Origin: Streptomyces antimycoticus | GTDB taxonomy: Bacteria; Actinomycetota; Actinomycetes; Streptomycetales; Streptomycetaceae | Reading direction: 5' to 3' | NCBI RefSeq assembly: GCF_005405925.1 | Contig: NZ_BJHV01000001.1 | Coordinates: forward strand, 5,518,001 to 5,582,000 | Length of the DNA stretch: 64,000 bases | In this document: in pieces, positions 29,039 through 60,807 of the stretch | Numbering within the stretch: the stretch's first letter is position 1 | Layout of the letters: every line of letters begins with the position of its first letter | The notes under the pieces: generated by a model | What the model saw: the letters and a program-made list of their open reading frames with translations, nothing else | Told to the model about the DNA's origin: nothing | Databases searched by the model: none | Program-made: the position numbers and the translations under genes

Positions 29039-29092
29039 CTTAGCCGGGTGTTAGCGGTGCGGCAGCCTTGCGATAGCGGCTCCGAGCAGAGT
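29039..29092 (+). promoter_or_regulatory. DUF4232-type promoter A: 11-bp repeats plus -10 box
   Basis: Repeats begin at 29039, 29050, 29061 and 29072 (CTTAGCC, GTTAGCG, GGCAGCC, GATAGCG). The last heptamer is followed after 8 bp by CAGAGT at 29087-29092. Same layout as sites at 48977, 52723 and 60738. Confidence 0.65.
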
Positions 29093-29143: not shown

Positions 29144-29857
29144 ATGAGCTCCAACACCACTGTCCGTACCGCTCGTCGCCGCACCGTCCGCATCGCCGCC
29201 GCGGCCCTGACCGCAGCCGCCGCCCTGACCCTGACCGCCTGCAACGGCTCGGACGCCAACGCCTCGAAGCCCGCGGCCGGCGCCGAGTCCAACGGCGGGG
29301 GCTCCTCCGCCGGAGCGCAGGGTTCCGGCGCCAAGGCGGACCCCGCTGCCAAGGTCGACACCGATGCGGGCGCCGCGGGCAAGCAGTCGAGCGGCGCGCC
29401 CGCCGCAGGCGGTGACCGGGCGGGCTCGGGCGTCGAGCGCTGCCACACCTCCGGCCTGGAGGCGTCGTTCGCCACGGGTGAGGACGCGGCCCCGGACCCG
29501 AACGCGGGTGGTTCGACGACCACCAGCATCGTGCTGACCAACGCCGGCGACCGCACCTGCAAGATCGGCGGCTTCGCGGGCGTGGACCTCACGTCCGAGA
29601 ACGGCGGTCAGGTCTGGTCGCTGGCCCGCTCGTCGGCCAAGTACGGCTCGATCACCCTGGGCCCCGGGGACAGCACCGACTTCACGATCAACCTCGGCAT
29701 GACCGACGAGAGCGAGGAGGGCTCCTACAAGCCCGCCTTCGCCGTCGTCACTCCGCCGAACGAGACCACCTCGCTGAAGCTGGAGTGGCCGTGGGGCGCG
29801 CTCGTCGACCAGCGAGCCGCCACCCACCCGGCCACCTTCGTCAACCCCATCGGCTGA
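29144..29857 (+). CDS. DUF4232-type secreted lipoprotein
   Basis: A 237-residue protein. Signal sequence ends in lipobox LTAC (Cys near residue 33), then a 60-residue Ala/Gly/Ser linker and a DUF4232-like beta-sandwich: CHTSGLEASFATGE, IVLTNAGDRTCKIGGFAGVD and FAVVTPPNETTSL, with two conserved cysteines. Four paralogues occur in this window under matching promoters. Likely surface-anchored; ligand unknown. Confidence 0.88.
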   Translation: MSSNTTVRTARRRTVRIAAAALTAAAALTLTACNGSDANASKPAAGAESNGGGSSAGAQGSGAKADPAAKVDTDAGAAGKQSSGAPAAGGDRAGSGVERCHTSGLEASFATGEDAAPDPNAGGSTTTSIVLTNAGDRTCKIGGFAGVDLTSENGGQVWSLARSSAKYGSITLGPGDSTDFTINLGMTDESEEGSYKPAFAVVTPPNETTSLKLEWPWGALVDQRAATHPATFVNPIG

Positions 29858-48976: not shown

Positions 48977-49041
48977 GTTAGTGGCGCGTTAGCGGAACGG
49001 CGTTGCGGCGGCAGCTTTACACCAGCGCGGCACGGCAGGCT
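48977..49041 (+). promoter_or_regulatory. DUF4232-type promoter B: 11-bp repeats plus -10 box
   Basis: Heptamers at 48977 (GTTAGTG), 48988 (GTTAGCG), 48999, 49010 and 49021 (ACCAGCG), all on an 11-bp period; CAGGCT at 49036-49041 is 8 bp after the last. TACCGAGG 8 bp downstream of the -10 is shared with site A. The rest of the 337-bp gap before the gene shows no other feature. Confidence 0.6.
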
Positions 49042-49111: not shown

Positions 49112-49777
49112 ATGAACGTCACCGCCTACCGCCGCGGCCGCACCGTCCGTACCATCGCCGCCTCCATGCTGGCCGTCGCCGCGCTCGGCCTGACCGCGGC
49201 GTGCGGCGGTAGCGAAGACGGAGGTTCGGACAACGCGGGCAAGGCGAACTCGTCGGCCTCGGCCTCGGCGGACAAGACGGCCAAGGGGGGCGACGCGGGC
49301 GCCAAGGATGCCAAGGACGCGAAGACGCAGGCCCAGAAGGCCGGGGCGGGGTCCGAGGAGGAGCCGATCGGCGACTGCGACATCAACAAGACGGTCTTCT
49401 CGGTCCAGAAGGTCAAGAACCCGATCAACCACCTGCTGCTCAAGGCGACCAACGGGGCCGGCGTGGACTGCAAGCTGGTCGGCTACCCCGGCCTGAAGTT
49501 CGGCGAGAACGCGCAGGCCGCCACCCCGGTGAACGAGGACAGCCAGCCGCAGTCCGTCGTCATGCTCGCCCCGGGCGAGAGCGCCTATGCGGGCATCACC
49601 ACCTCCGCGGGGGACGGCTCGGGTTCGGAGGGCAGCGAGGTCAACTCGCTCGAGGTGTTCGTCGACGGCAGCGAGGACCCGGCGAGCGTCGAGCTGCCCG
49701 GCGGCTCGGTCTACATCGACAGCGCCGCCCAGGTCACGTACTGGCAGACGACCGCGCAGGACGCCCTGACCTGGTAG
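49112..49777 (+). CDS. DUF4232-type secreted lipoprotein
   Basis: A 221-residue protein from ATG 49112 with AAGGAG upstream. Lipobox LTAAC near residue 31, a 55-residue charged linker (KDAKDAKTQAQKAG), then a DUF4232-like domain with two cysteines (GDCDINKTVFSVQKVKN, DCKLVGYPGLKFG). Likely exported and lipid-anchored. It shares its promoter layout with three others here. Confidence 0.85.
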   Translation: MNVTAYRRGRTVRTIAASMLAVAALGLTAACGGSEDGGSDNAGKANSSASASADKTAKGGDAGAKDAKDAKTQAQKAGAGSEEEPIGDCDINKTVFSVQKVKNPINHLLLKATNGAGVDCKLVGYPGLKFGENAQAATPVNEDSQPQSVVMLAPGESAYAGITTSAGDGSGSEGSEVNSLEVFVDGSEDPASVELPGGSVYIDSAAQVTYWQTTAQDALTW

Positions 49778-52722: not shown

Positions 52723-52765
52723 GTTAACGGGGCGTTAGTTGATCGTCAGCGGAGCCGAACAGACT
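52723..52765 (+). promoter_or_regulatory. DUF4232-type promoter C: 11-bp repeats plus -10 box
   Basis: Heptamers at 52723 (GTTAACG), 52734 (GTTAGTT) and 52745 (GTCAGCG); CAGACT at 52760-52765 is 8 bp after the last. CCGARCAGA around the -10 is also seen at site A. Confidence 0.65.
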
Positions 52766-52817: not shown

Positions 52818-53459
52818 ATGTCGCACCGCATCACTCTTCGTCACGCTCGCAAGGTCGCCGCCGCCGCGGTCGTCGCAGTCGCCGCGTTCGGTCTGACCGC
52901 GTGCCAGGACAACGCGGACGCCGGCGGCGACTCGTCCTCCGCCGCCTCGTCCAGCTCCGGCGGTTCGGACTCCTCCGACTCGGGCACCTCGGGTTCCTCG
53001 GACAGTGGCTCCTCCGGTTCCTCCGGTTCGGGTTCCTCGGGCTCCGGTGGTGGCGGCAACGCCGGTTCCGATGCCTGCGCCACCTCGCAGCTCGCCTTCC
53101 GCAGCACCCACGGCATGGGTGAGGGCACCCTGATCGTCGACCTCAAGAACACCGGGTCGGCCACCTGCACGCTGCAGGGCTTCCCCGGCGTCGACCTGAA
53201 GAGCAAGAACGGCACCCTGAGCGCCAAGCGCAGCGACCTCGCGGCGCCGAAGACGAGCGTCAAGCCGGGTGAGGAGACCCGCTTCACGCTCTACTACCCG
53301 CCGAACACCTCCGGTGGCTCCGGCGAGACCTTCACCACGCTCGTCGTCACCCCGCCCAACGAGACCCACTCGCACTCCCTGCCCGTCAGCATCAACGTCC
53401 CCGTCACCGACGGCACCGGCTCCGACATCAAGGTGGACCCCGTCGGCACCGGCAAGTAG
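52818..53459 (+). CDS. DUF4232-type secreted lipoprotein
   Basis: A 213-residue protein. Lipobox LTAC near residue 29, a 55-residue Ser/Gly linker, then a DUF4232 domain with cysteines in CATSQLAFRSTHG and CTLQGFPGVDLKSKNG, ending TLVVTPPNETHSHSLPVSI. It is the closest paralogue of the protein at 29144. Likely surface-anchored. Confidence 0.88.
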   Translation: MSHRITLRHARKVAAAAVVAVAAFGLTACQDNADAGGDSSSAASSSSGGSDSSDSGTSGSSDSGSSGSSGSGSSGSGGGGNAGSDACATSQLAFRSTHGMGEGTLIVDLKNTGSATCTLQGFPGVDLKSKNGTLSAKRSDLAAPKTSVKPGEETRFTLYYPPNTSGGSGETFTTLVVTPPNETHSHSLPVSINVPVTDGTGSDIKVDPVGTGK

Positions 53460-59944: not shown

Positions 59945-60631
59945 TTACTGGTCCGTACCGCCGCCGAAGGGGACGGCGTCCGCCGGGGAGGTGTGCCAGT
60001 TGGTGACGACGGGCTTGTCGACGGTGATGGTGCCGACCGGCAGGGAGACCGGGTTGGCGTCCTCATTGCCGACGGCGACGATGATGCTGTCCAGTTCCTT
60101 GCCGTTGTTGTCGTTGGTGGTCTTCGGGTTCACCCCGGCATAGGCGGTGGTTCCCCCGCTCAACGTGACCGCGGGTCCTACGGACTGCTCCGCGGGACCC
60201 GCCTCGGTGCCGTCCGACCCGAAGGCCACCGTGGGAAGCGCGGCGGGCAGCACACAGGTGATCCCCGCCTTGGCCTTCGCCATGACCAGGATGTATCCGC
60301 CGGCCTGCGACTCGTCCCGGGTGCTCCAGGAAATGTCGTTGGCCCCGCACACCTGCCCGACCTTGCCGCGCTCGCCGTTGCCGGTGTCGGCACCGGAGCC
60401 GTCCTGGGCGCCCTTGTCCTTCGCGCCGGGGGACGTGGCCGACGAGTCGGCGGCGCTGTCCTTGTCGCCCGCGGCATCGGCCGTGGCCCCGGTCGTGGCC
60501 TTGGCGGAGGCAGACGAGTCACTGGACCCACTGCTCGTCTCGTCCGACTGGCAAGCGGTGGCGAACATCGCGGCAGTCACCAGCAGGCTGGCACCGGCGA
60601 ACATACGGACCCGGGGGCGGCTGATAAGCAT
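59945..60631 (-). CDS. DUF4232-type secreted lipoprotein
   Basis: A 228-residue protein. Signal ends at the lipobox ATAC (Cys near residue 27), followed by a 65-residue Ala/Ser/Asp linker and a C-terminal domain with cysteines in VCGANDISWSTRDESQAGG and ITCVLPAALPTVAF. The domain is more diverged from DUF4232 than the other three but shares its promoter layout and linker type. Likely surface-anchored. Confidence 0.8.
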   Translation of the reverse strand: MLISRPRVRMFAGASLLVTAAMFATACQSDETSSGSSDSSASAKATTGATADAAGDKDSAADSSATSPGAKDKGAQDGSGADTGNGERGKVGQVCGANDISWSTRDESQAGGYILVMAKAKAGITCVLPAALPTVAFGSDGTEAGPAEQSVGPAVTLSGGTTAYAGVNPKTTNDNNGKELDSIIVAVGNEDANPVSLPVGTITVDKPVVTNWHTSPADAVPFGGGTDQ

Positions 60632-60695: not shown

Positions 60696-60738
60696 ACCTT
60701 GCCGTTGGCCGCTACCGTTCCATTAGCGCTCCACTAAC
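60696..60738 (-). promoter_or_regulatory. DUF4232-type promoter D: 11-bp repeats plus -10 box
   Basis: On the minus strand heptamers begin at 60738 (GTTAGTG), 60727 (GCTAATG) and 60716 (GGTAGCG); CAAGGT at 60701-60696 is 8 bp after the last. It lies between the divergent DUF4232 and DUF1707 genes. Confidence 0.6.
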
Positions 60739-60807
60739 GAAGCGCTGACGCGATCACAAACCGGCTGACCCACCTGCGTATCGACGGCGCGCCAGTAGAG
60801 TGAAACG

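What the first reader, a model, noticed from the sequence alone, without database searches (positions are those of the whole stretch)
29039..29092. Shared promoter architecture for four DUF4232 lipoprotein genes: site A
Heptamers on an 11-bp period end in GATAGCG exactly 8 bp before CAGAGT. The same layout occurs at 48977-49041, 52723-52765 and 60738-60696, each upstream of a DUF4232-type gene by 50-75 bp from the -10. In all four the final heptamer ends AGCG, and the -10 fits CARRST. Direct heptamers, 11-bp period, last copy 8 bp from -10 is the rule for SARP-family activators and resembles OmpR-type class II sites. I know no regulon described for this sequence (GTTAGYG), so this could be a new activator with a surface-lipoprotein regulon.
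Basis: partly seen in the sequence, partly recalled or inferred. Interest (0 to 1): 0.78.

Follow-up and report, generated by a model that had tools for sequence, protein, structure and literature searches.

The report
SARP-controlled surface lipoprotein promoter set
In Streptomyces-type bacteria, a set of scattered genes for surface lipoproteins share a promoter with repeated 7-base sites, and the pattern points to one activator of the antibiotic-regulator family, whose own gene sits next to one of these lipoprotein genes.

Summary
Heptamers on an 11-bp period, the last exactly 8 bp before the -10, lie upstream of all four DUF4232 genes. A sequence profile finds ten such sites in the 11.2-Mb genome with a clear score gap, all before lipoprotein genes (8 DUF4232, 2 other); an eleventh weak site also precedes one. 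One site lies between a SARP (BTAD+NB-ARC) gene and a DUF4232 gene, about 31 kb from the window. Relatives of that SARP were found by protein alone: 45 of 63 loci with >=50% identity carry the array at the SARP gene's 3' end, 0 of 17 with <=47%. In 25 genomes, the 13 with this SARP all have lipoprotein sites; the 12 without it have no credible one. Best explanation: this SARP activates a surface-lipoprotein regulon in the way AfsR activates afsS, with a different heptamer and a changed recognition helix. Binding and activation are inferred. My searches of open-licence papers found no description. It is a new regulon of a known activator kind, with an unusual non-antibiotic target set.

The parts
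29039..29078 (+). site A: four heptamers on an 11-bp period (CTTAGCC, GTTAGCG, GGCAGCC, GATAGCG)
29087..29092 (+). site A -10 hexamer CAGAGT, 8 bp after the last heptamer (TSS not mapped)
   Evidence: position rule tested
29144..29857 (+). DUF4232 lipoprotein gene downstream of site A
   Evidence: PF14016; lipobox LTAC in the translation
48977..49027 (+). site B: five heptamers (GTTAGTG, GTTAGCG, GGCGTTG, GGCAGCT, ACCAGCG)
49036..49041 (+). site B -10 hexamer CAGGCT
49112..49777 (+). DUF4232 lipoprotein gene downstream of site B
52723..52751 (+). site C: three heptamers (GTTAACG, GTTAGTT, GTCAGCG)
52760..52765 (+). site C -10 hexamer CAGACT
52818..53459 (+). DUF4232 lipoprotein gene downstream of site C
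60710..60749 (-). site D: four heptamers (GTCAGCG, GTTAGTG, GCTAATG, GGTAGCG)
60696..60701 (-). site D -10 hexamer CAAGGT
59945..60631 (-). DUF4232 lipoprotein gene downstream of site D

Best explanation
The arrays are operators of one SARP-family activator (OmpR-type DNA-binding domain + BTAD + NB-ARC), encoded about 31 kb from the window (G000:C1:5485069-5486850, - strand) directly upstream of one of its targets. SARP protomers sit side by side on successive heptamers, one per helical turn. The protomers nearest the promoter lie over the -35 region, 8 bp from the weak -10, and hold RNA polymerase as AfsR does at afsS. Shown here: the array geometry, its strong association with lipoprotein genes, and its conservation with the SARP gene. 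Inferred: that this SARP binds, that it activates, and that nucleotide binding by NB-ARC gates it. Also inferred: consensus distal heptamers (GTTAGCG) and degraded proximal ones (GGCAGCG) would load the proximal protomers cooperatively and give a switch-like response. The output is a set of surface lipoproteins, mostly DUF4232, some plasmid-borne. The inducing signal is unknown.
For: (1) Profile R1 in the own genome: ten sites at 46.4-30.8 bits, all before lipoprotein genes, next match 18.8 bits; 9 of the 10 were in the training set of 23, the site at 5106627 was not. (2) One site lies between the SARP gene and a DUF4232 start; the SARP product has BTAD, NB-ARC and Trans_reg_C. (3) 80 loci found with the SARP alignment alone: an R1 site begins -22 to +307 bp from the SARP stop in 45 of 63 with >=50% identity and in 0 of 17 with <=47% (recounted); 7 of the 45 were training sites, so 38 of 56 held out. 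(4) Co-occurrence: of 25 genomes, the 13 with the SARP at 54% or more all have a site before a lipoprotein gene, the 12 without have none with a ribosome-binding site. In 36 further genomes drawn without regard to the motif, 9 have such sites and all 9 have the SARP. (5) Geometry: period 11, and spacer 8 best, the published SARP rule (PMC10936776, passages seen). (6) Recognition helix: AfsR R87-T88-Y89 is Q-G-H in all ten aligned orthologues. AfsR T88 contacts the base pair at position 5 of the 11-bp repeat; if the shared CGTT is aligned, afs boxes carry T/C there and these heptamers A.
Against: No binding or expression data. 18 of 63 close SARP loci have no R1 site at the SARP 3' end. Of these, L117 and L144 have it further downstream, L166 has it before a DUF4232-like ORF on the other strand, and L153 and L158 score as arrays by the matrix; L131 has a DUF4232-like ORF without an array, L134 is a cut contig, and the other 11 have neither. 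Five of the 45 positive loci have no DUF4232-like ORF: L170 and L195 have another lipoprotein there, L145, L163 and L164 showed none by my pattern. 7 of the 15 DUF4232 genes in this genome lack the array (L041 judged by eye). The SARP is not next to a target in G086 and G019. Several sites share ancestry with their genes, and the genomes are related, so counts are not independent.
Confidence: 0.85

Rival explanations
1. Another regulator with an OmpR-type winged helix (a two-component response regulator such as a PhoP- or MtrA-like protein, or AfsR itself) binds the arrays.
For: OmpR-type regulators also use direct repeats near 11 bp (recalled), and AfsR and PhoP share a site at afsS (review PMC10972967, passage seen).
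Against: AfsR homologues occur in all 25 strains tabulated in that review, yet credible lipoprotein sites are missing in 12 of 25 genomes, the same 12 that lack the SARP. The afs box CGTT(T/C)ATCGNN differs from CGTTAGCG. No response regulator matched among the seven ORFs scanned around the SARP-adjacent site.
Confidence: 0.08
2. The shared upstream sequence is only inherited with the duplicated lipoprotein leader (promoter plus signal peptide copied as a cassette) and is not a regulatory site.
For: Site A, the plasmid copy L045 and L003 have similar leaders and similar bases between -10 and ATG.
Against: Heptamers diverge between species (GTTAGCG, GTCAGCG, GCAAGCG, GTGAGCG) while period 11 and spacer 8 persist. 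L003 and L023 keep the array before proteins without a Pfam match. Of 12 close SARP loci examined that have neither an R1 site nor a DUF4232-like ORF, 11 also lack an array by the matrix (L153 scores 30.6).
Confidence: 0.05
3. Chance or a low-complexity tandem repeat.
For: In this genome at <=2 mismatches the bare heptamer pair is no commoner than its reversed control (56 against 75).
Against: At <=1 mismatch all 6 matches precede lipoprotein genes; profile gap of 12 bits; 42 of 46 held-out regions beat all shuffles.
Confidence: 0.01

Closest known systems
AfsR and the afs box at afsS (Streptomyces coelicolor)
   Same: SARP + NB-ARC protein; direct repeats of 11 bp overlapping the -35 region, weak CA-type -10; both have a target gene beside the regulator gene (afsR-afsS order recalled).
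   Different: Clearly divergent in sequence (258 bits over residues 3-588 for the orthologue of G055); the short-form proteins end after NB-ARC; R87-T88-Y89 becomes Q-G-H; heptamer GTTAGCG instead of GTT(T/C)ATC; 3-5 repeats instead of 2; the target is a lipoprotein, not AfsS.
Medium SARPs such as CdaR, CpkO, FdmR1 (SARP + NB-ARC, about 600 residues)
   Same: Same domain plan (review PMC10972967, section 4 read; Pfam).
   Different: Those control antibiotic gene clusters; this one sits beside an M18 aminopeptidase gene and a lipoprotein gene and its sites lie before unlinked lipoprotein genes.
ActII-ORF4 / DnrI / PimR type small and LAL SARPs
   Same: Heptameric direct repeats, two or three copies, 4-bp spacers in PimR (review passages).
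   Different: Other heptamer sequences (recalled) and antibiotic targets.

Membership tests
SARP family (candidate regulator) | N-terminal OmpR-type DNA-binding domain followed by BTAD | tested here: met
   PF00486 36.5 bits (cut-off 26.2) and PF03704 135.3 bits (cut-off 22.1)
SARP family (target promoters) | direct repeats spaced 11 (or 22) bp | tested here: met
   period 11 in 38 of 46 held-out regions, other periods 7-16 in 0 of 46
SARP family (target promoters) | 3' repeat 8 bp from the -10 | tested here: met
   spacer 8 best of 3-14; exact at all four window sites; the -10 boxes are by sequence only, TSS not mapped
SARP family | protein binds the repeats and recruits RNA polymerase | not testable with these tools
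   needs EMSA, footprinting, in vitro transcription
Medium SARP | NB-ARC domain after the SARP domain, no TPR domain | tested here: inconclusive
   NB-ARC 38.1 bits (cut-off 23.5), no TPR match in the 594 aa scanned; most related proteins at 50-57% identity have open frames of about 880-970 aa from the match start and may be of the large class
AfsR orthologue | DNA-contact residues R87, T88, K95 of the recognition helix | tested here: not met
   Q, G and A at the aligned positions
AfsR orthologue | afs box CGTT(T/C)ATCGNN | tested here: not met
   consensus here CGTTAGCG; box from review passage
DUF4232 (PF14016) lipoproteins | PF14016 above curated cut-off | tested here: met
   all four window proteins, 46.1-80.6 bits against cut-off 27
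OmpR-type two-component response regulator | receiver domain in the candidate regulator | tested here: not met
   no receiver domain among the Pfam matches of the SARP

The most novel reading that the evidence does not exclude
A widespread Streptomyces module in which an NLR-like STAND ATPase of the SARP family senses a cell-envelope or intruder signal and switches on a dispersed, plasmid-extendable set of surface beta-sandwich lipoproteins: a SARP class devoted to the cell surface rather than to antibiotics, with an affinity gradient of 3-5 heptamers as a cooperative switch.
Probability: 0.25. Interest if true: 0.85.

Novelty: new variant of a known kind. Interest (0 to 1): 0.66.

Why it matters
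SARPs are known as activators of antibiotic clusters, and a 2024 review says that most medium and large ones are not well investigated (passage). Here a SARP clade is tied by sequence to a defined, conserved, non-antibiotic regulon with predicted sites at base resolution, so specificity rules (helix Q-G-H with heptamer AGYG, against AfsR) and STAND gating become testable with ready-made promoters. It also gives a lead on when DUF4232 lipoproteins, of unknown function, are made.

Full report
What is there. At site A the + strand reads CTTAGCC-N4-GTTAGCG-N4-GGCAGCC-N4-GATAGCG-N8-CAGAGT, then a leader and a DUF4232 lipoprotein gene starting at 29144. Sites B, C and D have the same plan with five, three and four heptamers. 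All four proteins match PF14016 above its cut-off and carry a lipobox by eye.

Chance. In the window GTTAGYG-N4-GTTAGYG with up to three mismatches gives 16 matches against 6.2 expected, none of 100 shuffles reaching 16. In the 11.2-Mb genome the three exact and three one-mismatch matches all lie upstream of secreted lipoprotein genes: site B, site D, a plasmid-contig gene, two further chromosomal DUF4232 genes, and one lipoprotein without a Pfam match. At two mismatches the pair alone is mostly noise (56 matches in all against 75 for the reversed control).

The regulon in this genome. The genome has 15 PF14016 genes. A matrix of heptamer and -10, trained on ten own sites, shows the array upstream of eight of them (A, B, C, D, L037, L035, L045, L043); of the other seven, five score like shuffles, L038 is equalled by 1 of 100 shuffles, and L041 was judged by eye because I could not place its start. 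A profile of 23 sites (R1; three of 26 sites dropped) finds ten sites from 46.4 to 30.8 bits and then drops to 18.8. All ten precede lipoprotein genes: eight DUF4232 and two without a Pfam match (L003, L023). A weak match (15.5 bits, L208) also has three heptamers, 8 bp and GAAGCT before a lipoprotein gene, so there may be eleven. Nine of the ten were in the training set; the tenth (5106627) was not.

The candidate activator. The site at C1:5484852 lies between the 3' end of a gene and a DUF4232 gene. That gene encodes Trans_reg_C, BTAD and NB-ARC domains, a SARP. The closest solved relative, asked with the 97%-identical orthologue of G055, is AfsR (8k60, 258 bits). The published SARP rule is direct repeats 11 or 22 bp apart, the 3' repeat 8 bp from the -10 (PMC10936776, passage). 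That is this layout.

Independent test by the protein. The SARP alignment (A1) was used to scan named genomes without reference to the motif; the best 80 of 193 relatives were kept. 45 of the 80 have a DUF4232-like ORF by an HMM that I built from own-genome proteins, 44 of them on the SARP strand and mostly just downstream. There were 48 such ORFs in the 45 loci; 46 (43 loci) got a start, and 42 of the 46 upstream regions beat all 100 shuffles. The misses are two second, more distant ORFs (L126, L127), L131, and one ORF in S. celluloflavus (L127) whose array lies just outside the 200 bp examined (R1 finds it with 43.8 bits). With R1 over the 80 loci and six plasmid loci (1.07 Mb), 60 matches have E <= 0.1. 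A match begins -22 to +307 bp from the SARP stop in 45 of 63 loci with at least 50% identity and in 0 of 17 with at most 47%; 7 of the 45 were training sites. Of the 18 without, two have the site further downstream, one before a DUF4232-like ORF on the other strand, two score as arrays by the matrix, one (L131) has the ORF without an array, one is a cut contig and 11 have neither. Five of the 45 have no DUF4232-like ORF; two of these have another lipoprotein there.

Co-occurrence. An exact heptamer pair occurs in 12 of 150 genus genomes; in ten of the twelve, the own genome included, it precedes lipoprotein genes, in G038 a gene for an exported protein, and in G085 it belongs to an odd tandem repeat. 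Among 25 other genomes (11 with the exact pair, 14 taken at about every tenth place) the SARP at 54% or more is in 13 and a site before a lipoprotein gene is in the same 13; the match list is capped near E 5e-48. In the 12 others the best SARP match is 39-46% and R1 gave five weak matches; two of these (L242, L255) satisfied my loose lipobox pattern but had no ribosome-binding site. Of 30 loci inspected out of 81 matches, all 19 at 30 bits or more precede lipoprotein genes, and 2 of the 11 below do. In 36 further genomes, 9 have sites before DUF4232 or lipoprotein genes (30 of 41 matches inspected) and all 9 have the SARP; two with the SARP (G103, G059) have only weak, diverged arrays; seven without any R1 match were checked and have no SARP of this clade with its DNA-binding part (for G107); 18 remain open. 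Related species are not independent, so no probability is attached.

Architecture. With the matrix trained on own sites only, period 11 passes in 38 of 46 foreign regions and no other period from 7 to 16 in any; spacer 8 is the best (38 of 46, spacer 6 next with 29). The promoter-distal heptamers are nearest GTTAGCG, the proximal ones often GGCAGCG. Heptamers drift between SARP subgroups (GTCAGCG, GCAAGCG, GTGAGCG) but mostly keep the AGYG core, and the helix keeps QGHVSRLR with few changes. In AfsR, R92 contacts T-38 and T88 the base pair at -36. Here R92 is kept, as is T at the same place of distal heptamers, while T88 is glycine and, with CGTT aligned, the next base is A instead of C/T. This is an argument from alignment, not a measurement.

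Mechanism. Most likely SARP protomers fill the array side by side, the proximal ones over the -35 region, and hold RNA polymerase on a weak -10, as AfsR does. NB-ARC would gate this by nucleotide. Strong distal and weak proximal heptamers suggest cooperative loading. The signal is unknown. The SARP has an M18 aminopeptidase gene upstream and a DUF4232 lipoprotein gene downstream; the seven neighbouring ORFs scanned gave no sign of an antibiotic cluster, but four of them have no Pfam match.

Plasmids. One own target is on the 130-kb contig C2. tblastn finds the site-A protein in 40 plasmid records. Of six that I fetched, three carry an R1 site just upstream of the DUF4232 homologue (39.9, 38.7 and 31.8 bits), among them pSTRVI01 of S. 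violaceusniger; three do not.

Novelty. The activator kind and the geometry are known. The heptamer, the clade-specific helix and a regulon of surface lipoproteins were not seen in the listings, which cover open-licence full text only and were partly capped.

Noticed in passing
L031:9067-10851 (G000:C1, about 31 kb before the window): The candidate SARP of this genome seems to shift frame near its 3' end compared with relatives (open frame ends ...SGRTPS; the homologous C-terminus is in another frame). Natural truncation or assembly error; not mended.
   Followed up: partly
L031 downstream of the DUF4232 gene; L091, L123, L125, L129: A second lipoprotein gene (..RR.LP.IAAAGIG..GCSG) follows the SARP locus in several genomes, also where DUF4232 is missing.
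   Followed up: no
L003 and L023 (targets without Pfam match): These lipoproteins share the leader type with DUF4232 targets but have other mature parts built of internal repeats (about 44-50 residues, two copies, by eye).
   Followed up: no
G107, L304: A protein 68% alike to the SARP's NB-ARC part begins, by eye, with an XRE-like helix-turn-helix instead of a SARP domain: a possible domain swap in a STAND regulator.
   Followed up: no
G000:C1, six places listed (1508060, 2816984, 4460615, 5753489, 5867762, 7369896): Six identical copies of GTTAGTGTGGAGTCATTG, probably in rRNA operons (not checked).
   Followed up: no
window:49370-49774: The DUF4232 domain is predicted as a confident beta-sandwich (pLDDT 92.2) with two cysteines invariant in 26 sequences (probable disulphide) and no clear solved relative.
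   Followed up: partly
G137, L092: A second SARP of the clade in one genome stands before its own lipoprotein with a different heptamer set (ATCAGCG, GTCAGCG, ATCAGCA, GTGACCA), hinting at paralogous regulator-lipoprotein pairs.
   Followed up: partly
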